Below are positions 2,890-20,335 of a stretch of DNA of 64,000 bases, piece after piece. Source of the stretch: Paraburkholderia caballeronis (GTDB taxonomy: Bacteria > Pseudomonadota > Gammaproteobacteria > Burkholderiales > Burkholderiaceae); assembly GCF_900104845.1 (NCBI RefSeq), contig NZ_FNSR01000001.1, positions 682,001 through 746,000 of the forward strand, read 5' to 3'. Position 1 is the first letter of the stretch; each line of letters begins with the position of its first letter. The position numbers and the translations under genes are program-made. Under the pieces are notes generated by a model, which saw only the letters and a list, made by a program, of their open reading frames with translations, ran no database searches and had not been told where the DNA came from.

Positions 2890-2965
<76 letters not shown>

Positions 2966-2973
2966 ATTAAATC

Positions 2974-3007
2974 AAAGGGTTACGTGAGTTTCTTGCGTAA
3001 CCCTTTT
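2974..3007 (+). terminator. Terminator-like hairpin carried by the island after the tRNA
   Basis: An 11-bp stem (AAAGGGTTACG / CGTAACCCTTT) is followed by a T-rich tract. It resembles, but is not identical to, the stronger hairpin at 20302-20335 that follows the displaced tRNA end. The island therefore supplies its own tRNA terminator. Confidence 0.7.
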
Positions 3008-3118: not shown

Positions 3119-3868
3119 ATGAGTTCCGACGTTTTCAAGAAATACAGCCAGCCCGCACAAAAGCGAATCGCGTTCCTTGAGCTGGTCGAGTACTACGTCA
3201 ACCGGAGTCCGCGATGGACGCCTGCCGACGGAGCGTTGCTGGTCAATGGCGTTATCCCGTCTCCGCAAGGTCGCAAGGACATTCCGACGTCCGTGGGCGA
3301 TGCGCGCCAGCTCGACGATCCCGATCTGCCTGCTACCCCACAGCAGCTAGGCGGCGCAAGGCGCGTGCTTGATGACTACCTCGACCATGTGAAGGATGGC
3401 GATCTGCCACCCGGTGACGAGGTGCTGTCGGACGATTTCCTGAAGTGGTGCTACGACAGCGACCAAGCGCCGTGGCACGTGCCCAAGCTACCGGAATTCC
3501 TGCGACATCTCTTTTTTCCGGGCTCGAAGGAGCATCCATTCGCGCTATCGGTCACGGACGAACTAGCATCCTTGAGACTCGTGGTCAAAGAGGACGCTGC
3601 TAGTCGGATACATAGAACGAGTGGACCGGGTAAGCGCCCGGGACTTTACGCAGAAATATTGCTCGCCCAAGACGAAGCCCGGCAGAAGGACCTCGATCAC
3701 AAGGATCCGGATGTTATCTGGGGCATTCTCGACACGATGAGCAAGGATCCGGGCGCAAAGAGCACCCGGTTACGAGGCAGCGATCGAAAGGGAATTACGT
3801 ACGCTTCTCACGAGGGGGAGAAGACCTACACCTACAAAGCTCTCAAGAAGTACCTGAGCGGCAAGTAA
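3119..3868 (+). CDS. Hypothetical island protein
   Basis: 249 aa, not recognised. The protein is soluble, highly charged and has no signal peptide or membrane segment. The middle is proline- and aspartate-rich (PSPQGRKDIPTSVGDARQLDDPDLPATPQQ), and the C-terminal 60 residues are basic with GITYASHEGEKTYTYKALKKYL, which could be a small nucleic-acid-binding fold. The ATG at 3119 has only AGGA immediately before it, so the start is uncertain. It is the first gene inside attL, transcribed inward, and may belong to the island's mobility or accessory genes. I assign no function. Confidence 0.6.
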   Translation: MSSDVFKKYSQPAQKRIAFLELVEYYVNRSPRWTPADGALLVNGVIPSPQGRKDIPTSVGDARQLDDPDLPATPQQLGGARRVLDDYLDHVKDGDLPPGDEVLSDDFLKWCYDSDQAPWHVPKLPEFLRHLFFPGSKEHPFALSVTDELASLRLVVKEDAASRIHRTSGPGKRPGLYAEILLAQDEARQKDLDHKDPDVIWGILDTMSKDPGAKSTRLRGSDRKGITYASHEGEKTYTYKALKKYLSGK

Positions 3869-4057: not shown

Positions 4058-4897
4058 TCAGGCAGTGAGTCGCATGTCGATATTATCGGACTCCAGCCAG
4101 GCTCGACGGACCGTGGCTGGAGGTTGGTAACGATGAGCGCTATGTGGCCGCCTCTCGTTGTAGAACTGGCGCCATTGCTCGATGAGCATTTTGGCCTCGG
4201 CGCAGCTGCGGAACCATTCGCGATTCAGCAGTTCGTCACGCAGTTTGCCGTTGAAGCTTTCGACGAAGCCATTCTGCCAAGGGCTGCCCGGCGTGATGAA
4301 AGCCGGGCCAATCGATGCGTCACGCAGCCAGCGCATGACCCGGGCGGCGGTAAATTCCGCGCCGTTGTCCGACCGGATGAATGCCGGCTTTCCATACAGC
4401 CGCATCAGCCTCGACAGCACCAGAATCACGTCCTGCGAACGCAGGCTGGCACCGACCTCGATTGCCAGGCATTCCCGGGTGTACTCGTCGATCACGCACA
4501 GCATCTTCAAGACACGGCCGTCGACCAGTTGATCGTGGACGAAGTCGTAACTCCAGACCGAATTGGGCTTTGTCGCGCCAGGCAGGCGGATATCGCTGCC
4601 GCAACGCCGCCGGCGCGGCCGCCGCTTCGGGATGTTCAGCTTCAGCGCACGCCACATCCGGCGCACGCGCGATTCGCCCAGCGACAACCACGCCGAGATA
4701 CGGCGATACCCAAAGCGCGGCACTTCCTGGGACGCCGCGATCAACCGTTCGCCCAGGCTCCGGTCTTTCTCCGGTTGCCTGAGTGCGTAGGTCGCCACCC
4801 GGCGGCTCAGCCCCAGGTAACGACATGCCTTGCGTTGCGATAATCCCCGCCGGGTCAGGACTTCCAGCGCTTCGCGCCGGCCCGTCGGGGTGCTCAT
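4058..4897 (-). CDS. IS3-family transposase OrfB (DDE integrase domain)
   Basis: 279 aa. OrfB supplies the catalytic domain for transposition. An N-terminal helical segment (HTH_21-like, [15 protein letters not shown]) precedes the rve-type integrase core. The acidic triad is visible: D in [14 protein letters not shown] in [11 protein letters not shown] and E in [17 protein letters not shown]. The ATG overlaps the OrfA stop in an ATGA arrangement that includes an A7 run. The ORF looks intact. The OrfA/OrfB sequences resemble the IS407/IS2-like branches of IS3, which I infer rather than prove. Confidence 0.92.
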
Positions 4898-5157: not shown

Positions 5158-5427
5158 CGAGTTCTCCTTGCCTACAGGATAAGAGAACTCACTTGCCGTT
5201 TGGCTACATGATCCGTCTTGTATGTTTAAACCAGATCAGCGCGGTACAGTCTGATCACCGCTGAGGTGACCGGACCGGATCGTGTAACCTGGAATCGTCT
5301 GGAGTCGGCGAGTCCGCTCGCCAGCTCGTACCTGAGTCGATTGCGCACGTTCTCCGTGCTGGTCTTCCTGAAGCCCGAACGGTTAATCGAGCGGTTTGAT
5401 ACCAGCTCGCATGTACAAGAAAGGGAT

Positions 5428-6404
<977 letters not shown>

Positions 6405-6475: not shown

Positions 6476-6994
6476 TCACGCATCGCCTTGCGTCGGTTGC
6501 TTCGCGTACTGCTTCAGCCCTTCCTGTACGAGCGAGCCGATCGCGTTCCTGACGGCATCGTCATCCGCCGTGTCGTACGTCGGGAGCGCGTTGACTGACA
6601 AGGACTCACCCGGCAGTCTGAATCTTTGGTCCACGTGCAGGCGCGAAATGCCGGCCGCCGCGAGCACCCGCCGTGCGTACTCCGGAAAATTGTTCGTGTG
6701 GCCCATCAGTGCGTTGCATGAGGTGAGCTTCCGTTTGATCGCCGCCATTTTCCTGGCTGCGGCGCGCAGTTCATTGAGACGAGCACCGATGTGCGAGTGA
6801 TACTCGATCTCGAATGCGTAGGCGTCCTCGAACTGATCGCTGAACGAACACCGGATGCGAATGTCGCCCATGTAGACATCGCCGAAGGCATTGATCAGAT
6901 AGTTCCTCAATTCGATGACGATTTTGCCGAAGCCGTATTCCGAATATCCATAGCAGTAGGCAAATGGTTCTTGCTTGGTAGCGGGAAGTGACAT
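6476..6994 (-). CDS. Hypothetical protein divergent from the defence cassette
   Basis: 172 aa, not recognised. I chose the ATG at 6994 because AGGAGG stands 6 nt upstream; the frame is open further but that region has low-complexity Ser/Pro. The protein looks cytosolic and alpha/beta: an early aromatic stretch (FAYCYGYSEYGFGKIVIEL), a central helix rich in Arg/Ala (ARLNELRAAARKMAAIKRKL) and an acidic C-terminus. It is divergent from the WYL regulator gene at 7461 and shares the 466-bp intergenic region, so it may be co-regulated with the cassette. No catalytic motif is evident. Confidence 0.7.
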   Translation of the reverse strand: MSLPATKQEPFAYCYGYSEYGFGKIVIELRNYLINAFGDVYMGDIRIRCSFSDQFEDAYAFEIEYHSHIGARLNELRAAARKMAAIKRKLTSCNALMGHTNNFPEYARRVLAAAGISRLHVDQRFRLPGESLSVNALPTYDTADDDAVRNAIGSLVQEGLKQYAKQPTQGDA

Positions 6995-7460
6995 GAAACC
7001 TCCTGAGAGAAGTGCGCCGACGCGGGATTGGGGCGGCGGAGAGGCCTTTGATGGCTGAGCTCGGGAAGGTGATATGTGACTGAGATTTTCTGGAATGCAC
7101 CGGAGGTGCACCCTGACGGGCGGCGGGTTGGGTATCTGGGCGACTCAATTCCGCCAAACTCAAATCCTTCCGACGCGTGGGGCATTGAACAACGGATGGT
7201 TGCTAGGCAGTGCGGCGCGCTAGTGCATTCTCGTCAGTATGTAATCCAGGTGCGTGATCGCACAGTCGGTCAAACGGCTAGTCACATCGCTCGTCGTCTG
7301 CTCTGCCGGTTGATATGAGGGAACACTGCTCCCCTACTTTTTCATACCGGACAGGTTAGAAGCTGATCATTTTGATTCGATGTATCGATCAATTTAAGAC
7401 ATGTTGACGTATCGTTAGGCGATGGTTATCCTTGCCCCGTACTGGCATTAGCTACCCACC
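6995..7460. promoter_or_regulatory. Divergent intergenic region of the defence cassette
   Basis: 466 bp without a convincing gene. It is AT-richer towards 7320-7420. It contains the near-palindrome at 7372-7392 and a possible TTGACG (7404-7409) 16 bp before TTATCC, a weak promoter candidate for the regulator gene. A GTG-initiated 80-codon frame at 7076-7318 is present, but I see no support for it. Confidence 0.5.
7372..7392. promoter_or_regulatory. Candidate operator for the WYL regulator
   Basis: TTGATTCGAT, GT, ATCGATCAA: the two halves are complementary apart from one extra T. It lies 69 bp upstream of the regulator start and just upstream of the putative promoter. BrxR-type regulators bind such inverted repeats upstream of their own genes, so autoregulation is a reasonable inference. 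Confidence 0.5.
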
Positions 7461-8357
7461 ATGTCAAACGATCGTCTTTCCGAGATGACCCAAGCCCAGC
7501 GCGACCGGCTCGCATTCATCGAGCTGCGTCTGCGCTTTGTTGGCGAAATCCGCAGGCAGGATCTCGTAACCCGCTTCGGCATCCAGTCCGCAGCCGCAAC
7601 GCGAGACCTTGGGCAATACAAGGAACTGGCGCCGCGCAACATGGAATACGACGCTAGCAGCAAGGTCTACGCATGTGCGTCTTGGTTTCGCCCGGTTTTC
7701 GATTTTCCTGCCGAACGTGTGCTTCGATGGCTCGCCCAAGGCTACGGCGACGCTGAACCCGTCCGTTGGAAAGGGCTGGTCGCCCATGATGGAACCAGTC
7801 TGCCTGTCAGGGCCGACCTCGAAATGCTTTCGGTTGTGACGCGTGCTATCCACCGTTGTGATGCTGTGGAAGTCTCCTATCGTGCGTTATCGAGTGGCCT
7901 TACAACTCGAGAGATCGTACCGATCGCGCTCGCCGACAGCGGATTACGCTGGCATGTCCGAGCATTCGACCGGCGCAGCGGTGAATTCCGCGACTTCGTG
8001 CTGGGTCGGCTTGATGACGCGCGACTGGTCACGGGTCCAATCGCCGAGCATGAGATGCCAGATCAGGATATCCAGTGGAACCGTATCACCGAACTGGAGC
8101 TTGTGCCTCATCCAGCTAACGTGCAGCACCCCGATACCATCGAGGCGGAATACGGCATGGAGGGTGGCGTACTCAAGGTTCGCACTCGCGCGGCAATGGC
8201 CGGCTATCTACTGCGCCGCTGGGATGTCGACTGCACCGCGGACCACAGCCTCAAGGGCGGTGAGCATCATCTTTGGCTGCGCAATCGCCAAGCGCTATAT
8301 GGCATCACCAATCTTGCCATTGCCCCCGGCTACGGGGCATCGGGCTCTGAATGGTGA
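7461..8357 (+). CDS. BrxR/CapW-like wHTH-WYL transcriptional regulator
   Basis: 298 aa. Three parts are visible: an N-terminal winged helix-turn-helix (about residues 12-60, RLAFIELRLRFVGEIRRQDL..FGIQSAAATRDL), a WYL-type domain (about 120-200, with LRWHVRAFDRRSGEFRDFVLGRL) and a C-terminal extension resembling WCX (about 205-298). This is the architecture of BrxR and CapW regulators that control BREX, CBASS and other defence loci. It is the first gene of the cassette, 42 bp upstream of the helicase, and probably represses it until an unknown nucleic-acid or nucleotide signal is bound. The ATG at 7461 lacks a strong ribosome-binding site; M9 is an alternative start. Confidence 0.85.
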   Translation: MSNDRLSEMTQAQRDRLAFIELRLRFVGEIRRQDLVTRFGIQSAAATRDLGQYKELAPRNMEYDASSKVYACASWFRPVFDFPAERVLRWLAQGYGDAEPVRWKGLVAHDGTSLPVRADLEMLSVVTRAIHRCDAVEVSYRALSSGLTTREIVPIALADSGLRWHVRAFDRRSGEFRDFVLGRLDDARLVTGPIAEHEMPDQDIQWNRITELELVPHPANVQHPDTIEAEYGMEGGVLKVRTRAAMAGYLLRRWDVDCTADHSLKGGEHHLWLRNRQALYGITNLAIAPGYGASGSEW

Positions 8358-8399
8358 TGGCGATAAAGACATGGGAAATAACTGGAAGGGGAATGTACC

Positions 8400-11918
<3,519 letters not shown>

Positions 11919-11932
11919 AAGAAAACCGAAAC

Positions 11933-14452
11933 ATGACAACCATCAAGACTCCAAAAAAATTGATCGAGGTCGCGCTACCGCTGGACGACATCAACATAGC
12001 GTCCGCGCGAGAAAAATCGATTCGACATGGCCATCCGTCGACGCTGCACTTGTGGTTCGCACGACGCCCACTAGCGGCTGCGCGCGCGATCTTGTTCGCG
12101 CAAATGGTCAATGATCCTGGATATGAGCGCCATCTTGGGCGAGGGGTGAATAAGGAAAAGGCAAAGCTTGAGCGCGAACGGCTCTTCTCAATCATCCGCG
12201 ACTTAGTCAAGTGGGAAAACACAAACAACGAGGATGTCCTTAACCGCGCGCGAGACGAAATTAATCGATCGTGGCGGGAGACCTGCGAGCTCAATGCCGG
12301 CAAGCCGGGATTTGACCCTGAGCGGTTGCCGGTTTTTCATGACCCGTTCGCTGGTGGTGGTTCGCTGCCGCTGGAGGCCCAACGCCTTGGCTTCGAGACC
12401 TACGCTACTGACCTGAATCCGGTCCCGGTGGTTCTGAACAAGGCAATGATTGAGATCCCGCCGCGTTTTAAAGACCGTGCCCCTGTTGGACCAAAAGAGT
12501 ACGCCGCCAAACAATCTCGAATTGAAGAGATCTGGTCGGGTGCACAAGGTCTCTCCGAAGACCTGCGCCGCTATGGGAATTGGGTGTTGCAGCAAGCCAC
12601 TGAAAGACTTGCACAGCATTACCCTAAAATCAAATTGCCTCATCGCTTGGGAGGAGGCAAGGCCACCGTTCTTACGTGGCTTTGGTGCCGGACTGTAGCC
12701 AGCCCCAATCCGGCCGCCGGGGGTGTCCATGTTCCATTGGCCAAGTCTTTTCAGATCGCCTCCCGTGAGGGCCGTGAGTTCTGGATTGAACCGAAGGTGT
12801 CGGAGGATCGGCTTAGCTACGAATTTGTACTCAAAGAAGACGGCCCTCCGGCGTATCCAAGCACCGTTGGTGGTCGCGGCGGAATCTGCGTGCTGACCGA
12901 TTCACCAATCACTCTCAACTACATACGTGCCGAAGGTGTCGCCGGACGTATGGGCCAGCGGCTTATGGCTGCGGTCGTCGAGACTTCCAACGGAAAGGCT
13001 TTCGTTGCCGCCAGCGAGATCGAGGAGCCGGATTTTTCAGGCATGGAGCAGACCGCGCCGGACGCGGAGATCCTGCATTGGGCCGGCTGCACCAACGTAG
13101 TGGTCTATGGGATGAAGACGTTCCCCAGTCTATTCAATCTCCGACAACAATTGGCGCTGTCCACCTTTTCATCGCTAGTCGTGGAGGCTCGGGAGCTTGT
13201 CAAGCGTGATGCCGTCGCTGCCGGATTTCCGGACGACGGAGTTACTCTTCGCGACGGGGGCGCCGGGGCGACCGCTTATGCCGAAGCTATTTCCGTTTAC
13301 CTTGCGTGCGCGATTGGGCGAGCGGCTGATTACTGGAACACGCTTACGTCATGGGAGTCGGGCGGTGAATTCGTTGCCCACGCCTTCACTAAGCATGCTC
13401 TGCCCATCGTCTGGGACTATGGGGAAATCAACCCGTTGACCGACGGAGGGGGTTCTTGGTCCAGCGCATTGGGCTGGATTGCACGAGTCATCGACCTGCT
13501 ACCTGCTAACGCGCCTGGCCACGTGTTCCAGCTCGACGCTGCCAAGGGTACGATTCCTAGCGAAGTCCAAACGGTAGTATCGACTGATCCCCCTTATTAC
13601 GACAACGTTCCCTACTCGAACCTGTCGGACTTTTTTTATATTTGGTTGCGCCCATGCTTACGCGACGTTTTCCCTGATGTGTTCGCAACGCGTCAGACGC
13701 CCAAGGAGGATGAGCTCGTCGCCTCGCACAGCCTCTATGAGGACATTGGCGATGCAATGAAGCACTTCACCGATGGCATGACGCTGGCGCTGAGGCAAAT
13801 TCACGCCAAGTCCAACGACAGCGTTCCCGTAACGATCTACTACGCTTTCAAGCAGAGCGACACCGGGGCCAGCGGCACAGCTTCTTCCGGGTGGGAGAGC
13901 TTCCTGGAGTCGGTCATCAAGGCAGAGTTTGTCATCACTGGAACTTGGCCGGTCCGAACCGAGCGCAGCAGTCGCGGACGCGCAATTGGCTCGAATGCAT
14001 TGGCATCGTCCATCGTTCTCGTTTGCCGCAAGCGCGACAAAAATGCCGAAGCCATCTCGCGCCGGGACTTCCAGCGCGAACTCAAAGATCATCTCAGGGA
14101 TGCATTAGAAGAAATGATTGGCGGCGTCGAGGGCGTCTCACCAGTCGCGCCTGTCGATCTCGCGCAAGCAGTGATCGGTCCCGGCATGGCGGTCTTCTCG
14201 AAGTATTCTTCCGTGCTCGAAGCGGATGGCAGTCCGATGACGGTTCACACGGCATTGACGCTGATCAACAAAATGCTGACTGATGGTGCGGATGACTTCG
14301 ATTCCGACACCCACTTCTGCTTGGCCTGGTTCGATGAGCAAGGTTGGGCGGATGGAGATTTTGGTCAAGCAGACGTTTTGGCTCGTGCGAAGGGTACTAG
14401 TGTCCAAGCGGTCGCAGCCGCCGGGGTGGTGAGGTCTGGGGGGGCAATGTGA
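11933..14452 (+). CDS. DUF1156-family DNA methyltransferase
   Basis: 839 aa from the ATG at 11933; an in-frame ATG at 11915 overlaps the helicase stop (ATGA) and is an alternative. The N-terminal DUF1156 region begins [35 protein letters not shown]. Motif I of the SAM site is [13 protein letters not shown] (about residue 137), and the catalytic motif is [12 protein letters not shown] (about 551), which predicts amino-methylation of adenine or cytosine. In a defence role it would modify self DNA. Just before the stop lies a run of seven G, and the next small gene overlaps the stop in the -1 frame. The C-terminus may therefore be truncated relative to single-chain homologues. Confidence 0.9.
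14438..14444 (+). other. G7 homopolymer at a gene junction
   Basis: Seven consecutive G lie five codons before the methyltransferase stop. Adding one G would remove the stop and give GGG-GGG-GGC-AAT-GTG-AGG-TTG, reading straight into the 107-aa frame. The tract could be a slippage site, a phase-variable tract, a recent mutation or an assembly error. Confidence 0.6.
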
Positions 14453-14772
14453 GGTTGTTTAAACCCGCCGAATACGCGGCCGATTGGCGTCCCGAAAATG
14501 ACAATAACACTCCAGTCTGGGAAGCGCTCCATCAAATGATCCGCGCGTTGCAGTCGAGCGGAGAAACTGCGGCCGGAGAGCTTCTTGCTGGCATGCCAGC
14601 AAGAGCGGATCAAATTCGAAACCTAGCCTACCGTCTCTACACACTCTGCGAACGCAAGAAGTGGGCGGATGAAGCACGGGCCTATAACGAGCTCGTCACA
14701 GCATGGAGTGCAATCGAACAGGCGGCAGGAGAATTTGGCGTGGTCAACACTCAGCGTGAATTGGATATTTAA
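14449..14772 (+). CDS. 107-aa protein, probable detached C-terminus of the DUF1156 protein
   Basis: 107 aa with a GTG start that overlaps the methyltransferase stop by 4 bp (GTGA); no clear ribosome-binding site is seen, so translational coupling is likely. The protein is helical: [18 protein letters not shown], then [12 protein letters not shown], then [25 protein letters not shown]. From memory, long DUF1156 proteins end with a very similar segment (ERKGWAEEA-like), so this may be that domain made as a separate chain. A single-base change in the G7 tract would join the two. It lies 13 bp before the DUF499 gene. Confidence 0.75.
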
Positions 14773-14785
14773 ACGGGGAACGACA

Positions 14786-17632
14786 ATGACTCTGAAACCG
14801 TGGCGCGAAATTGCGGAACCGCATGCCGATGTGCGTGAAGGAAACTTCCAGCAGGCCGAGTTCGCGGCTGACCTGTCACGCGTGCATGCAGGCACAGCAG
14901 CCGAGGAATACCAGAATCCAGCCCTCTTTTTCCAACGCACCTTCATAACCGAAGGCATGCGACTGCTGCTCGACTCCGTAGTCAAGCGACTTTCTGGCAA
15001 AGGCGGGGATCCGGTCATCCAGCTGCAGACCGCATTCGGAGGCGGCAAGACGCACACGATGCTTGCGGTCTATCATCTTGCCAAAAGTAGCGGGCCAACG
15101 AGCGACCTACAAGGTGTACCTGCGATCCTCGATGCAGCCGGAATAAGTGAGCTGCCCAAGGCACGTGTCGCTGTTCTTGATGGCATAAAGTCATCACCCA
15201 ACCAGCCTGTCGTGAGAGATGGACTAAAAATCCGCACGCTATGGGGTGATCTTGCCTGGCAGTTGGGCGGCGAAGAAGGTTACGCGCTAGTCGCAGATGC
15301 CGATGCCTCGGGGACGTCTCCCGGCAAAGCAGTTCTGGAGGAACTGCTTGGTCGCTATGCACCGTGCGTGATTCTCATCGACGAGCTGGTCGCCTATATC
15401 CGCCAATTCGATGATGGCAAGGTGTTGACGGGCGGTACGTTCGATTCGAATCTCAGTTTCGTGCAGGCGTTGACGGAGGCATTGAAGGCTGTGCCGACCG
15501 CTGTGCTACTGGCGTCGTTGCCGGAGTCGGCCAAGGAAGCAGGCAGCCAGCGCGGTGAAAAGGCGCTGCAGACACTTGCGCACTATTTCGGTCGTATTCA
15601 CGCGTTGTGGAAACCGGTCGCGGCAGAAGAAGCCTTCGAGATCGTCCGTAGGCGCCTCTTCACGAACATCAACAACCGTCTAACTGCAGAATCGGTGTGC
15701 CGAACCTTCGCGGACTACTACACCACGAATCGCGATGATTTCCCTCAGGAAACGCAGGACAGCAAGTACTTCGAGCGCTTAACGCATGCGTATCCAATTC
15801 ACCCCGAGGTATTTGACCGCCTATACGAAGACTGGTCAACGCTCGATAATTTCCAGCGCACGCGAGGAGTACTTAAACTGATGGCCAAGGTGATCCATCG
15901 CTTGTGGAAAGATGGCAATAACGATCCGCTGATCATGCCGGGTAGCTTTCCCCTGATGGATGCAGATACGCGTAACGAAGTTCTCTATTATCTTCCCCAA
16001 GGATGGGACCCGGTCATTGAGCGAGATGTTGACGGCGAACGTTCCGAAACGTGGGATATCGAGAATCGCGATACCCGGTTCGGTAGTGTGCAGGCGTGCC
16101 GTCGCACCGCGCGTGCGATTTTTCTCGGAAGCGCACCCAATACCACCAACCAGGGGTTACGCGGCGTCGATCTCGAGCGCGTCATCCTGGGTGTGGCCGT
16201 TCCGGGCCATCAGGTGAACCTGTTCAAGGATGCGCTTCGCCGGCTGGGTGATCGGTTGCACTATCTGAACCAAGCGAACAACCGCTTCTGGCTGGATACC
16301 CGTCCTAATCTGCGCCGCGAAATGGAAGAGCGCAAGCGCAAGTTCCAAGACAAGGAAGATGTCTTTCCTGCAGTCCGCGAGCGCGTGCAGCGTTTCCTCG
16401 TGAACGGCGTGTTCAGCGGCACCCATATTTTTACCGGTAGCAATGACGTGCCAGACGACTGGGCACTAAGACTGGTGGTACTCCCCCCCGACGCAGCTTT
16501 CAGCAAGAGCGGGCAAAGTCTTGCCATCGATCATGCGACCGAGATTCTCACGATGCGTGGCGACCAGCCGCGCATCAAGCGGAATCGCCTGATCTTCGTC
16601 GCGGCTGACTATGACAGCGTGAGCCGCCTCAAAGATCACGTGCGCTCGTACCTTGCCTGGCGTAGCATTGTCACCGACTACAAAGATAACCGGATCGTTC
16701 TAGATAACTTGATGGCCAAGCAGGCGCAGGCCAGTCTCGATCAGGCCGAGGACACCGTCAAACGCATGGTCCGCGAGACCTACAAATGGCTGCTAGCTCC
16801 TGCCCAAGAAGCACGTCAGGGGAAAGGACTTTCGGAAATCCTGTGGGAACCTTTCCCACTTAACCCCGGCGCGCAGAGCTGGACTCAGGAGATAGAGCGC
16901 GTCCTTAAAGACAACGAGCTGTTGATCAGTGAGTGGGCACCTATCCATCTCGCTAGGGTGCTCCGGGAGTGGTTCTGGAAGGAAAACTTCAAAGACGTCA
17001 GCGCGCTGAACGTGTGGCAACAAAGCTGCCAGCAGCTCTATCTGCCCCGGCTGAAGGACGACGACGTGTTTTTCAACACGATGGCCGCCGGCGCAGAAAG
17101 CCGGGAGTTTTTCGGCATTGCGCAGGGCAGGGAAGATGACCGGTATGTGGGCTTCAGCTATGGCAAGCGGACATCTCTGATCAGGGACTCGTCGTTGCTG
17201 CTGATCGAGCCGATCGCTGCGGCTGCGTACATGGAGCAATTGCGAGCAGCGGAGGAAGCTTCTCGGGCCCAGGCTGCCAGCGCTACCTCCGGAGCAGCAA
17301 CGACGACATCAGCAGGCGAAAGCACCTCGCCAGCGACCGGTACTTCCTCAGGAAACACGCCTAGCGCCGGAGCAGCGGGTACCGTAAGCCAGACTATCAA
17401 CAAACGATTTTACGGGGTATTCGACCTCAATCCGATTCAGGCCAAGCGGCAGTTTGCTGATCTGGCTGACGAGGTGGTGCAGCAATTCACTGTGCGTCCC
17501 GGCGTGAACGTGACGATCACTGTCGAAATCCAGGCTGAATCCATCACAGGATTCGATGCGGGGATCCAGCGTGCCGTAACGGAGAACTGCATCACGCTCA
17601 AATTCAAACCCGGAAGTTTTGAACCAGAATAA
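14786..17632 (+). CDS. DUF499 AAA+-type ATPase of the defence cassette
   Basis: 948 aa from the ATG at 14786, preceded by GGGGAA; the frame is open to 14669 but that part overlaps the previous gene. Walker A is AFGGGKTHT (about residues 84-92) and Walker B is [12 protein letters not shown] (about 194). Near residues 828-866 there is a Ala/Ser/Thr/Gly-rich low-complexity linker, then a compact C-terminal domain ([28 protein letters not shown]). DUF499 proteins co-occur with DUF1156 methyltransferases in defence islands and are reminiscent of the large BrxC/PglY ATPases of BREX. It likely powers or gates the complex formed with the methyltransferase and helicase. Confidence 0.88.
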
Positions 17633-17976: not shown

Positions 17977-18300
17977 TTAAAGAACTGCTTCGAGTCCCTT
18001 CCTGTCAATCAGGTTCAGCAGTTTTTGCGAAGGTCCGCTCGGTCGCTTGTCGCCGATCTCCCACTTGCGCACCGTCGAGGAGCTGGTGTTGAGCGCAGCA
18101 GCAAGCACCGCCTGGCTCAAATGAAACCGGGCGCGCAACGCGCGAATTTTCGCAGCATCGTATTCCGGTACGGGTACGAGGCACAGTGCCTCGTACTTCT
18201 GCATCTTCCGCTTGTCGATAAAACCGAGGCGATGCAGATCGGCCGCCGTTTCATGAACGGCACCGAGGATCGCGCTCTTGGCTTTAGCTTTGGTCGGCAT
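17977..18300 (-). CDS. Antitoxin with XRE-type helix-turn-helix
   Basis: 107 aa. The ATG at 18300 has AGGAG 7 nt upstream; longer frames lack one. The C-terminal half is a lambda-repressor-like HTH (LRARFHLSQAVLAAALNTSSSTVRKWEIGDKRPSG), and the N-terminal half would wrap the toxin. It overlaps the upstream toxin gene by 17 bp, the toxin-first order seen in HigBA-like modules. It is expected to neutralise the toxin and repress the operon at the palindrome 18676-18694. It probably stabilises the island. Confidence 0.9.
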   Translation of the reverse strand: MPTKAKAKSAILGAVHETAADLHRLGFIDKRKMQKYEALCLVPVPEYDAAKIRALRARFHLSQAVLAAALNTSSSTVRKWEIGDKRPSGPSQKLLNLIDRKGLEAVL

Positions 18301-18667
18301 GACAAATCTCCTGTAGCGTTCCGTCGGCCACCGCAAGATCGAGTTGGCCGGACGTTCTGGCAAGCAAATCCGCAGCAAGACTCTGCAAAGCATCGAGTTC
18401 GCTGTCACTGATATTCGAGCGTTCGTTTTTCTCGAATCCGAACACAAAGAACCAGCGGGTTCCCTTGTTTGTTGCAAGGAGCGTTCTGGCCCCGCCACGC
18501 TTGCCTCGCCCGGAAAGGCCAACCCGCTTCTTCACGACACCGCCCCCAAGGTCGGCATCGATCAGCCCGGCAATCATTTCCTCGACCGCCTCGCACAAGG
18601 CCGCATCAGTCAGCCCGGACTTGCGCATCCAGCGCTGGAAGTGTCGGTTTTTGAACACTCTCTTCAC
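18284..18667 (-). CDS. RelE/HigB-family toxin
   Basis: 127 aa, GTG start. The fold signature is clear: KKRVGLSGRGKRGGARTLLA then RWFFVFGFEKNERSNISDSELDALQ, typical of the RelE-like PF06296 family of ribosome-dependent mRNA interferases. The C-terminus is somewhat long for the family. It is the promoter-proximal gene of a toxin-antitoxin pair and lies directly downstream of a strong promoter with an overlapping palindrome. Leader length is only a few bases after the predicted transcription start, so translation may begin with little or no leader. Confidence 0.9.
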   Translation of the reverse strand: MKRVFKNRHFQRWMRKSGLTDAALCEAVEEMIAGLIDADLGGGVVKKRVGLSGRGKRGGARTLLATNKGTRWFFVFGFEKNERSNISDSELDALQSLAADLLARTSGQLDLAVADGTLQEICHADQS

Positions 18668-18673
18668 TTTCGT

Positions 18674-18701
18674 ATTATGCCACTTGGTGGCATAGTTTCA
18701 A
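18674..18701 (-). promoter_or_regulatory. Toxin-antitoxin promoter with embedded operator
   Basis: Read on the minus strand, TTGAAA (18701-18696) and CATAAT (18679-18674) are separated by 16 bp. A perfect inverted repeat TATGCCAC-CAA-GTGGCATA (18676-18694) fills the spacer and overlaps the -10 box. This is the layout expected for autorepression by the antitoxin. Confidence 0.8.
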
Positions 18702-20062
18702 GATTGGGTTGAATCGAATTCGATGCCAGCCTGCTCCAGCATCCACGCCTCGATGCGGGTGTGCCACTGGCGTAGCAAGTCGAGCGGTCGTCGGCGGTAG
18801 TGCTTCTCAGCCAATGCGCTAGGCTTATGTCCCTGAATTTGGGCCACGACACCGGCGGGAACCTCCAGCCACTCGGCCAGCGTGCCGAACGAACGGCGCA
18901 AACCCTGTAGCGTCACATGGGGTAGGCCCGCTTGTTCGATGGCAGTCCCGTGCGCATAGCGCGGTTCTTCGATGTGGCCGCTTTCCGATGCGCTGCTCGG
19001 GAATACCCAAGGCGACGGTTGCCAGGGCGAGCCTGCCGCTGTCAAGGCCTGCCGCTGTGCGGCGCTCGGCGGCGTCTCGTTGATACGCTTCAGTTCCAGC
19101 AGGAGCGATCGGAAATAGGGCGTCAGCGGGATGGTGCGGGTGCCTTCGATCTTGTCGCGCAGCTTTATCTTGTTCCAGCGCAAATCGACGTTTTCCCACC
19201 GCAGTTCCGCGAGTTCTTCGCGGCGTGGGCCAGTGATGAGAACCCCTTGCAGGTAGGCGGACGCCACGGGATTGGGTAGCGCGCGTACCGCCTTAAACCA
19301 TGCTGGCAATTGCTCGCGCTCTAGGCAGTCGCCTTCGGGTGTTTTCGTACTGGGCAACAGGGCCGTGACCTTGGGAGACGAGTGGCAGTCATCCGGCAAC
19401 AACCCCTTGAATTTGGTTTGACCCTCGCACCAACCGGCAAAGGCCTTGAACATGCGATAGGCGTAAGCGATGCTCGTTGGGCGTTTGGCAACCTCGTCTT
19501 CCATCCAGCTGGCGATCGTGTCGCCAGTCATGTGGGACAGATTCAGCGGCATGAGCGGATACAGCGGGCCTTGGCTGGTCAGCCCCTTTCCGCGCTTCTT
19601 TTTCTCGCCGCCGGGGGCGGCCAATTTGCGGTGGTCCTCTATGTACTGCGCGCTGCGCGGGCGCTTCGTTTTCGGGGAAGGTTTCGCTTCCAGCTCGATC
19701 AGGTAAGCCGCCCATGCGTCGGCAAATGTCACGTTTTGGCGCTCGGCTTCGGCCTTTCGCGTAGCTACGGCGGCACGCTGCTCGGCTGCGTGTTCGCGCG
19801 GATCGATGCCTTCGTCAACGAGGCGCTGCAGGCGGCGCGCCTCCTCCTGTGCCTGGTCGATGTTCCAGCTTCTGGGGTCGCCTATCGTGACGCGGACGGC
19901 GTCTCCGTTGAGCTTTGCCTGGAAGATGTACGCCTTCGCCCCTGCCTTGGTTGCACGCAAGCCGAGACCGGGAGCTTTGCTGTCCCAGATGAATGCCTGT
20001 GATTTGCCGGCAGGGCACTTATGCGCTTCTACGCGTCCTGCCGTGAAATTGACCTTCGCCAC
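18698..20062 (-). CDS. Tyrosine integrase of the island (P4-like)
   Basis: 454 aa. It catalyses site-specific recombination at the tRNA-Thr gene. The N-terminal DUF4102-like arm-binding region (GLGLRATKAGAKAYIFQAKL..RVTIGDP) is followed by a core-binding SAM-like domain and the catalytic domain. Visible catalytic residues are R280 (TGPRREEL), R389, H412 (GHKPS) and the nucleophile Y422. The position that is usually His in the HxxR motif reads Gln (Q386-G-L-R389). The gene points inward from attR, 184 bp away, with arm-type repeats between. The ORF is intact. Confidence 0.93.
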   Translation of the reverse strand: MAKVNFTAGRVEAHKCPAGKSQAFIWDSKAPGLGLRATKAGAKAYIFQAKLNGDAVRVTIGDPRSWNIDQAQEEARRLQRLVDEGIDPREHAAEQRAAVATRKAEAERQNVTFADAWAAYLIELEAKPSPKTKRPRSAQYIEDHRKLAAPGGEKKKRGKGLTSQGPLYPLMPLNLSHMTGDTIASWMEDEVAKRPTSIAYAYRMFKAFAGWCEGQTKFKGLLPDDCHSSPKVTALLPSTKTPEGDCLEREQLPAWFKAVRALPNPVASAYLQGVLITGPRREELAELRWENVDLRWNKIKLRDKIEGTRTIPLTPYFRSLLLELKRINETPPSAAQRQALTAAGSPWQPSPWVFPSSASESGHIEEPRYAHGTAIEQAGLPHVTLQGLRRSFGTLAEWLEVPAGVVAQIQGHKPSALAEKHYRRRPLDLLRQWHTRIEAWMLEQAGIEFDSTQS

Positions 20063-20246: not shown

Positions 20247-20294
20247 TGATTTGTAATCATCAGATGGTGGGTTCGAGTCCTGCAGCCGGCACCA
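20247..20294 (+). repeat. attR core: displaced tRNA-Thr 3' end
   Basis: 48 bp matching 2918-2965 with two mismatches (A for G and T for C in the variable/T-arm region). Only the 3' part of the tRNA is present, so it is not a functional gene. It marks the island's right boundary. Confidence 0.92.
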
Positions 20295-20301
20295 GTAAAT
20301 C

Positions 20302-20335
20302 GAAGGGGTTACAGGAAAATTCCTGTAACCCCTTC
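20302..20335 (+). terminator. Original tRNA-Thr terminator
   Basis: A 15-bp perfect stem (GAAGGGGTTACAGGA / TCCTGTAACCCCTTC) with a 4-nt loop lies 7 bp after the displaced tRNA end. It is probably the ancestral terminator of the tRNA gene before integration. Confidence 0.8.

What the first reader, a model, noticed from the sequence alone, without database searches (positions are those of the whole stretch)
7461..17632. Five-gene candidate anti-phage cassette: BrxR-type regulator, SNF2 helicase-DUF3883, DUF1156 methyltransferase, 107-aa protein, DUF499 ATPase
All five genes run in one direction with 4-bp overlaps or short gaps, inside an integrase-bearing island, headed by a regulator of the type that controls BREX/CBASS. 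The families co-occur in defence islands; they echo DISARM (SNF2 helicase + methylase) and BREX (large ATPase + methylase), yet there is no PLD-type nuclease, DUF1998 protein, PglZ or BrxL here. The only nuclease-like module is the helicase C-terminus. This looks like a methylation-guided system with its own composition.
Basis: partly seen in the sequence, partly recalled or inferred. Interest (0 to 1): 0.85.

Follow-up and report, generated by a model that had tools for sequence, protein, structure and literature searches.

The report
Anti-phage operon with swapped, split methyltransferase
A mobile-looking island in a bacterial chromosome (likely Paraburkholderia) carries a known type of three-protein operon predicted to defend against phages (Hma), headed by a BrxR-like regulator; most of its predicted DNA-marking enzyme groups with a distant branch of the family, likely through gene exchange, and is encoded in two reading frames, so the predicted DNA-destroying arm is likely off or weakened in this isolate.

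Summary
The five ORFs are real, but the cassette is not new: it is the Hma (helicase-methylase-ATPase) system of PADLOC, also called Type-1 DUF499-centred BREX-related (HmaA 2125 bits, HmaB 1187, HmaC 1544). The '107-aa protein' is the C-terminus of HmaB (164 bits, model 867-973). The frame runs through this point in all 63 relatives readable there; here it changes at a seven-G run. An intact 952-aa copy, identical to both pieces except at the last two residues of the first, exists in public data. Reading error, slippage or decay: open. New here: (1) the window's hmaB is a mosaic: HmaA and HmaC group with L016, most of HmaB with another clade. (2) Across 45 loci HmaB is two evolutionary modules: aa 181-660 (target recognition and catalysis) are exchanged, while aa 721-952 mostly travel with HmaA/HmaC. 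This suggests that the C-terminal third couples HmaB to helicase and ATPase rather than reading the motif. The window breaks this rule and is split inside that part. (3) A BrxR-like WYL gene stands upstream in 31 of 72 such loci.

The parts
2918..2983 (+). left attachment repeat: 3' part of tRNA-Thr (2890-2965) plus flank
   Evidence: ARAGORN; 66-nt direct repeat, 88% to 20247-20312
7404..7432 (+). promoter-like site TTGACG-17-TATCCT upstream of the WYL gene
   Evidence: 1 found, 0.6 expected from shuffles, so weak alone; TTGACG stands at this place in 9 of 12 aligned loci, window included
7461..8357 (+). BrxR/CapW-type WYL regulator (298 aa)
   Evidence: Pfam WYL 40.6 bits; 7qfz E 1.5e-77, CapW 9c5g E 2.6e-36, BrxR 7t8k E 5e-21
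8400..11918 (+). HmaA: SNF2/RapA-type helicase with C-terminal PD-(D/E)XK-type (NOV_C) module; DEAH 230-233, D1077, E1096-x-K1098
   Evidence: PADLOC HmaA 2125 bits; those residues invariant in 47 aligned rows, window included
11915..14452 (+). hmaB, 5' reading frame: DUF1156, motif I 143-149 (DPFAGGG), DPPY 558-561; 845 aa
   Evidence: PADLOC HmaB 1187 bits, model 1-864 of 973; all of these motif residues but A146 invariant in 67 aligned proteins
14438..14444 (+). run of seven G at which the hmaB frame changes
   Evidence: read; none of 63 relatives has a G run over 5 in the 46 nt compared
   Evidence: PADLOC HmaB model 867-973, 164 bits; AlphaFold model of the intact P0001
14786..17632 (+). 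HmaC: DUF499 AAA+ ATPase (948 aa from ATG 14786); Walker A FGGGKT 84-89, Walker B VILIDE 195-200; hypervariable 791-869
   Evidence: PADLOC HmaC 1544 bits; FGGGKT and D199-E200 invariant in 46 rows; variability
18698..20062 (-). tyrosine integrase of the island
   Evidence: Arm-DNA-bind_3 and Phage_integrase; phrog_1
20247..20312 (+). right attachment repeat

Best explanation
Window 7461-17632 encodes an Hma-type (Type-1 BREX-related) operon - a BrxR-like WYL regulator, the SNF2 helicase HmaA with a predicted C-terminal nuclease, the predicted methyltransferase HmaB in two overlapping reading frames, and the DUF499 ATPase HmaC - that is predicted to mark host DNA with adenine methylation and to destroy DNA lacking the mark. 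Inferred mechanism: HmaB's inner part (about aa 181-660, target recognition plus catalysis) likely reads a motif and methylates it; HmaC likely assembles on DNA with HmaB; HmaB's C-terminal third (about aa 721-952) likely docks onto HmaA/HmaC; at unmethylated sites HmaA would translocate and cut with its PD-(D/E)XK module; the WYL protein likely represses the operon until a signal arrives. Shown by sequence comparison: the specificity part of HmaB varies independently of HmaA/HmaC while its C-terminal third mostly stays with them, and the window's HmaB is a cross-clade mosaic that violates this and is also frame-broken within the C-terminal third. The restriction arm is therefore likely off or weakened in this isolate if the break is real; methylation may persist, because the known catalytic motifs and the recognition insert lie before the break.
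For: Family. Catalytic residues kept: HmaA DEAH, D1077, ExK 1096-1098, HmaB motif I and DPPY, HmaC Walker A/B. Conserved neighbourhood: HmaB downstream of HmaA in 53 of 53 and A-B-C in 51 of 53 loci with at least 9 kb downstream; WYL within 1.5 kb upstream in 31 of 72. Mosaic: best A-clade identity of HmaA 0.87-0.99 per 120-aa block up to aa 960, 0.72 and 0.85 after; HmaB aa 241-840 0.77-0.95 to the best B-clade row against 0.30-0.65 to the best A-clade row; last 27 aa 0.93 A, 0.48 B. Trees (22 rows): window with L016 fully supported for HmaA and HmaC; window with L128, L062, L055 and L057 fully supported for the HmaB core, and rejected for HmaA (delta lnL 797, p 5e-6) and HmaC (709, p 5e-4); window with L016 rejected for the HmaB core (377, p 3e-41). 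Two modules over 45 loci, 990 pairs: aa 721-840 partial correlation 0.84 with HmaA/HmaC and 0.01 with the recognition region; aa 541-660 0.19 and 0.76. C-terminal part loses 241 lnL on the A/C topology, 1148 on the core topology. Natural pair L030/L031: HmaA 98%, HmaC 96%, recognition region 49%, last 42 aa 100%. Split.
Against: No function was tested. The C-terminal part is not fully congruent with A/C: the A/C topology is still rejected for it (p-AU 8e-5) and the trees differ by 56 of at most 84; aa 841-910 keep a 0.30 correlation with the recognition region. In the window itself aa 721 to about 905 are B-like, so either tight coupling is not needed or this operon is impaired. The 80 loci were chosen by similarity to this HmaA. 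Tree groups were named after the identities had been seen; one row (L065) that I first put in B falls with A, and without it the HmaA test of window plus all B rows is weaker (delta lnL 42, p 0.027) than (39, p 3e-4). The break may be a reading error (an intact copy exists). Methylated motif, base and phage range are unknown.
Confidence: 0.7

Rival explanations
1. Reading error: the isolate's hmaB is intact and the assembly misread the length of the G run, a place where long-read assemblies often err (recalled).
For: P0001, 952 aa, identical to the window's 5' frame at 843 of 845 residues and to all 107 of the 3' frame, lies on other contigs of at most 98,515 bp, not on the window's 3,708,915-bp contig. 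P0001-P0035 (65% identity or more) are all 944-957 aa.
Against: Of the six G/C runs of seven found in 436 kb of the same genome, the other five lie within ORFs of 124-987 aa; the sample holds no run of eight or more, so it cannot settle the point. Sources of P0001 and the sequencing method are not shown.
Confidence: 0.37
2. Phase variation: the G run is a slippage tract that switches full-length HmaB on and off, as described for pglX of the Pgl/BREX system.
For: The frame changes at the run; two states of the gene exist in public data. Phase variation of PglX in S. coelicolor, and frequent pglX disruptions, are stated in PMC9122589 (passages).
Against: Seven G is short for a contingency tract (recalled). 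None of 63 relatives has a run over 5 there, so the tract is not conserved. The five other hmaB genes flagged as broken show no homopolymer of six or more at the break.
Confidence: 0.27
3. Decay: after a cross-clade exchange HmaB no longer fitted HmaA/HmaC, and the gene was lost by mutation.
For: HmaB 721-840 of the window's allele has 0.60-0.65 identity to the 15 loci closest in HmaA/HmaC, below the minimum (0.72) of 282 other pairs with A/C identity of at least 0.80.
Against: The same mosaic exists intact (P0001). HmaA, HmaC and the WYL gene are open and keep their motifs.
Confidence: 0.2
4. HmaB works as two chains, the second started at GTG 14449 by the 4-bp overlap with the first stop, or joined by frameshifting at the G run.
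For: GTGA overlap at 14449-14452 with a G-rich stretch just upstream. Among the 120 listed of 376 hits to the 107-aa piece, some short C-terminal pieces that begin with M lie on contigs over 20 kb (P0175, P0180, P0187, P0233, P0240), so other genes may be split nearby; they could also be gene-caller or contig-edge fragments.
Against: The split falls between two strands of a predicted wing (839-842, 845-848). The frame runs through in 63 of 63 loci read there. Most of the 120 listed pieces lie on contigs under 10 kb, as fragments would.
Confidence: 0.1
5. The C-terminal HTH-like domains of HmaB help to read the target motif, as suggested for Type-3 BREX methyltransferases and their BR homologues in PMC12839542.
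For: Predicted HTH/wHTH folds (passages; order of helices and strands).
Against: Aa 721-840 do not vary with the recognition region once A/C relatedness is taken out (0.01), and stay similar where that region differs (L030/L031, L061/L062). Aa 841-910 do so a little (0.30).
Confidence: 0.15

Closest known systems
Hma system (PADLOC; Payne et al. 2021, PMC8565338; passages read)
   Same: HmaA, HmaB, HmaC in order and over nearly full model length
   Different: HmaB in two frames; BrxR-like WYL gene at the head; that paper calls HmaB an m5C enzyme, whereas the DPPY motif here points to an amino-methyltransferase
Type-1 DUF499-centred BREX-related (BR) system (PMC12839542; section 29 and passages read)
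   Same: Tripartite core, helicase with C-terminal PD-(D/E)XK module, DUF1156 N6-methyltransferase with inserted TRD, DUF499 ATPase; no HEPN hit here
   Different: WYL/BrxR association and HmaB module exchange were not among the passages found ('recombination' and 'co-evolution' 0 times, WYL and BrxR only in references); split, cross-clade HmaB here
Snf2-nuclease defence of Halomonas meridiana (reference 112 of PMC12839542; only title and citing sentences seen)
   Same: Cited there as confirming the phage-defence role of the HmaA helicase
   Different: Paper not held; details unknown to me
BREX (PglX/BrxX) and phase-variable Pgl of Streptomyces coelicolor
   Same: Methyltransferase that sets specificity for both methylation and defence (PMC11341690, passages); methyltransferase gene prone to breaks (PMC9122589, passages); BrxR-type regulator
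   Different: No PglZ, BrxL, BrxA or BrxB row (nine proteins; for HmaA only the best 25 of 56 families are shown); TRD lies inside the catalytic domain, not C-terminal
DISARM
   Same: SNF2 helicase related to DrmD (419 bits) next to a methyltransferase
   Different: The HmaA model scores 2125 bits; no DrmB (DUF1998) or PLD-protein row

Membership tests
Hma / Type-1 BR system | HmaA, HmaB, HmaC encoded together in one direction | tested here: met
   HmaB as two adjoining ORFs; A-B-C order in 51 of 53 relatives
Hma / Type-1 BR system | SNF2 helicase with C-terminal PD-(D/E)XK nuclease | tested here: met
   NOV_C 78 bits at 1047-1138; D1077, E1096, K1098 invariant in 47 rows. That the Type-1 helicase carries a C-terminal PD-(D/E)XK nuclease is from PMC12839542; that NOV_C is this module is my reading
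Hma / Type-1 BR system | DUF1156 N6-methyltransferase with TRD insert | tested here: met
   DUF1156 99.9 bits; about 400 aa between motif I and DPPY; in this isolate not one continuous frame
Hma / Type-1 BR system | no standalone DUF3780 (which marks Type-2) | tested here: met
   no such Pfam hit among the nine ORFs scanned
Hma / Type-1 BR system | restriction of phage, host methylation | not testable with these tools
   needs experiment
BREX | PglZ and BrxC (DUF6079) | tested here: not met
   no PglZ or DUF6079 row among nine ORFs; HmaC hits DUF499/HmaC (HmaA list capped at 25 of 56)
DISARM | DrmA, DrmB (DUF1998) and DrmC (PLD) | tested here: not met
   DrmA and DrmD models hit only HmaA, far below the HmaA model; no DrmB or DrmC row (same cap)
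BrxR/CapW regulators | full-length similarity to a solved BrxR/CapW (N-terminal HTH and WYL) | tested here: met
   7qfz over 3-293 of 298 aa, E 1.5e-77; CapW and BrxR 7t8k also hit. 7QFZ occurs four times in the BrxR paper PMC9122601 (count)
BrxR/CapW regulators | binding an operator upstream of its own gene | tested here: inconclusive
   promoter-like site (not above chance by itself) and an ATCATTTT box in 8 of 12 loci, but a palindrome that I see in the window is not kept in L016 although its WYL protein is 98% identical
Phase-variable methyltransferases | homopolymer in the coding frame at which the frame changes | tested here: met
Phase-variable methyltransferases | tract length varies among cells of one strain | not testable with these tools
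   no reads available

The most novel reading that the evidence does not exclude
HmaB is an exchangeable specificity cartridge on a fixed coupling tail, and the G run in that tail is a safe switch: when the tail is cut off, HmaB goes on methylating the host but can no longer recruit HmaA/HmaC, so defence can be turned off and on, or a new specificity adopted, without the cell attacking its own DNA.
Probability: 0.12. Interest if true: 0.78.

Novelty: new variant of a known kind. Interest (0 to 1): 0.5.

Why it matters
Hma is widespread (26 phyla in PMC8565338), but I found nothing on how its methyltransferase talks to its helicase and ATPase. The finding that HmaB's recognition core is shuffled between operons while its C-terminal third mostly stays with HmaA/HmaC points to where that conversation may take place and argues against the published suggestion that these HTH-like domains mainly help to read the target. 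It also offers natural test pairs (L030/L031: nearly the same HmaA and HmaC, different HmaB core) for asking whether HmaB alone sets the target of both marking and attack. The window's operon is a natural case where the rule is broken. The link to a BrxR-like regulator would extend that regulator family to Hma.

Tried and rejected

What I say is not in print rests and on word searches inside PMC12839542, in an open-access library.
Full report
WHAT IS THERE. The window lies on a 3,708,915-bp contig of a 7.1-Mb, three-contig genome. Two genomes listed as same genus hold loci identical over 5.8-5.9 kb to Paraburkholderia rhynchosiae and P. haematera records (L002 = L029, L003 = L067), so the genus is very likely Paraburkholderia. 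The five ORFs of the finding exist. Pfam confirms WYL, SNF2/Helicase_C plus NOV_C, DUF1156 and DUF499. PADLOC gives the identity: HmaA 2125 bits over 1-1172 of 1176, HmaB 1187 bits over model 1-864, the 107-aa ORF 164 bits over model 867-973 of the same HmaB model, HmaC 1544 bits from residue 40 of the longest ORF. So the cassette is Hma plus a regulator, HmaB is in two pieces, and HmaC most likely starts at 14786, where relatives align from residue 1.

WHAT IS KNOWN. Hma was defined as a three-gene candidate system in PMC8565338 (passages). PMC12839542 (section 29 and passages) renames it Type-1 BREX-related, describes the helicase's C-terminal PD-(D/E)XK nuclease, the inserted TRD and three C-terminal HTH-like domains of the methyltransferase, and cites one experiment on the helicase. 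I could not read that experiment.

CATALYTIC PARTS. HmaA keeps DEAH 230-233 and D1077, E1096 and K1098, invariant in 47 aligned sequences. HmaB has the order motif I (DPFAGGG, 143-149), long insert, DPPY (558-561), which is that of alpha-class amino-methyltransferases (class order recalled; passages say the same of the related Type-3 BREX enzymes). HmaC keeps FGGGKT and VILIDE. Of the cassette's genes only hmaB is visibly broken.

NEIGHBOURHOOD. Of the 80 loci kept by a scan with HmaA (583 of 595 pattern matches encoded relatives; the best 80 are kept, so they lean to close kin), 53 have at least 9 kb downstream: HmaB follows in 53 and A-B-C order holds in 51. Of 72 with a near-complete HmaA start and at least 1.5 kb upstream, 31 have a WYL match on the same strand within 1.5 kb (27-98% identity). 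Gaps over 600 bp, room for extra genes, stand between A and B in 46 of 73 and between B and C in 29 of 61. The WYL protein is BrxR/CapW-like. I found no paper that links BrxR to Hma. The island is bounded by a repeat of the tRNA-Thr 3' part and carries an integrase.

THE SPLIT. In 63 of the 80 loci the start of the C-terminal part could be read: in all 63 the frame runs through this point, with a consensus near GVVESGxGxLRL, and no G run there exceeds 5. Some of these genes are broken elsewhere. In the window the 5' frame stops at 14452, just after a run of seven G (14438-14444), and the 3' frame takes over at GTG 14449. The protein database holds P0001, 952 aa (9 members, 4 contigs, longest 98,515 bp), which equals the window's 5' frame at 843 of 845 residues, all but the last two, and its 3' frame at all 107, and P0121, 105 aa on a 3,708,915-bp contig, the length of the window's own. 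Intact copies therefore exist. The next 34 proteins, of 65-89% identity, are 944-957 aa (120 of 7,998 scored are listed). Against a unique split: among the 120 listed of 376 hits to the 107-aa piece, a few pieces that begin with M lie on contigs over 20 kb (P0175, P0180, P0187, P0233, P0240), and could be split genes elsewhere or fragments. In the AlphaFold model of P0001 (mean pLDDT 82, pTM 0.77) the break falls between two short strands (839-842, 845-848) of what I read as a winged helix; what follows is a helical tail. Motif I, DPPY and the recognition insert lie before it. In 436 kb of the same genome there are six G/C runs of seven and none longer; the other five lie within ORFs of 124-987 aa, two of them under 200 aa. 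This does not tell reading error from mutation.

THE MOSAIC. The window's HmaA, HmaC and WYL are closest to Burkholderia sp. MS389 (L016: 89, 86 and 98%), yet its HmaB is only 52% identical there. Along the chain the change occurs between aa 60 and 180, and back again within about the last 45 aa. In trees of 22 rows the window pairs with L016 for HmaA and HmaC and with L128, L062, L055 and L057 for the HmaB core, all at 100 (SH-aLRT); the opposite placements are rejected (HmaB with L016: delta lnL 377, p 3e-41; HmaA with the four: 797, p 5e-6; HmaC with the four: 709, p 5e-4). The wider test, window plus all nine B rows, is weaker for HmaA (42, p 0.027) than for HmaC (106, p 4e-7). Groups were named after the identities had been seen. 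An earlier version counted L065 as B, which it is not.

TWO MODULES IN HmaB. Over 45 loci (990 pairs, window excluded), partial correlations with HmaA/HmaC identity (recognition region held constant) and with recognition-region identity (A/C held constant) are: aa 1-60 0.30 and 0.26; 61-120 0.60 and -0.07; 121-180 0.62 and 0.58; 541-660 0.19 and 0.76; 661-720 0.37 and 0.48; 721-840 0.84 and 0.01; 841-910 0.84 and 0.30; 911-952 0.83 and -0.05 (999 label permutations). Conservation level does not explain it: 541-660 and 841-880 have similar mean identity (about 0.68 and 0.65). Trees agree in direction: the C-terminal part loses 241 log-likelihood units on the A/C topology and 1148 on the core topology; Robinson-Foulds distances are 80 (A/C to core), 56 (A/C to C-terminal part) and 76 (core to C-terminal part) of at most 84. 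The C-terminal part is thus not perfectly congruent with A/C either. Pairs such as L030/L031 (HmaA 98%, HmaC 96%, recognition region 49%, aa 911-952 100%) show exchange rather than fast drift. The recognition region does not vary with any segment of HmaA or HmaC beyond -0.13 to 0.26 (326 pairs, window included). I infer that HmaB carries specificity for the whole system, as PglX does in BREX (PMC11341690, passages), and that its C-terminal third is the coupling surface. The window is the exception: in aa 721-840 its allele has 0.60-0.65 identity to the 15 loci closest in A/C, below the minimum of 0.72 among 282 other pairs of like A/C identity; aa 841-905 are also low (0.55-0.66 against a minimum of 0.62), aa 911-952 are not.

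VERDICT. A known kind of system, well conserved, here with a cross-clade HmaB and a broken frame. Most likely state: the restriction arm is off or crippled if the break is real (inferred); methylation may persist (speculative; changes in the PglX C-terminus that separate restriction from modification are mentioned in PMC12707154, passages).

Noticed in passing
window 4058-4897 (-) and 5266-6375 (+): IS3-family and IS110-family transposase genes lie between the tRNA and the cassette; the IS110 ORF matches its second domain only over 2-44 of 87, so it may be cut.
   Followed up: no
window 18284-18667 (-) and within 17977-18522 (-): RelE-family toxin gene (156 bits) with an overlapping HTH protein gene, a likely toxin-antitoxin pair beside the integrase.
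   Followed up: partly
window 3119-3868 (+) and 6476-7111 (-): ORFs of 249 and 211 aa without a Pfam or PHROGs match; the first also has no PADLOC or NCBIfam match.
   Followed up: no
L059:15159-15845: An inner piece of hmaB lies in inverted orientation in an alphaproteobacterial MAG; no flanking inverted repeats found.
   Followed up: partly
L023:15701-17638: hmaB lacks about aa 430-741 of its relatives in frame, leaving the two ends joined.
   Followed up: no
HmaC aa 791-869 (window about 17156-17392): Hypervariable segment (mean identity 0.46 among pairs otherwise at least 0.80 alike) that does not vary with HmaB's recognition region.
   Followed up: partly
L016:9062-9955: WYL protein 98% identical to the window's while HmaA is 89% and HmaB 52%; the regulator may be under stronger constraint or newly exchanged.
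   Followed up: no
plasmid, E. coli and viral collections: HmaB relatives in 65 of 72,556 plasmid records (Thermus 16, Rhodococcus 14; E up to 1e-50), DNA matches in 17 of 5,426 E. coli genomes, and two IMG/VR contigs with relatives (L126, L127).
   Followed up: no
P0175, P0180, P0187, P0233, P0240 (database proteins): Short C-terminal HmaB pieces starting with M on contigs over 20 kb: possible further split hmaB genes, or fragments.
   Followed up: partly
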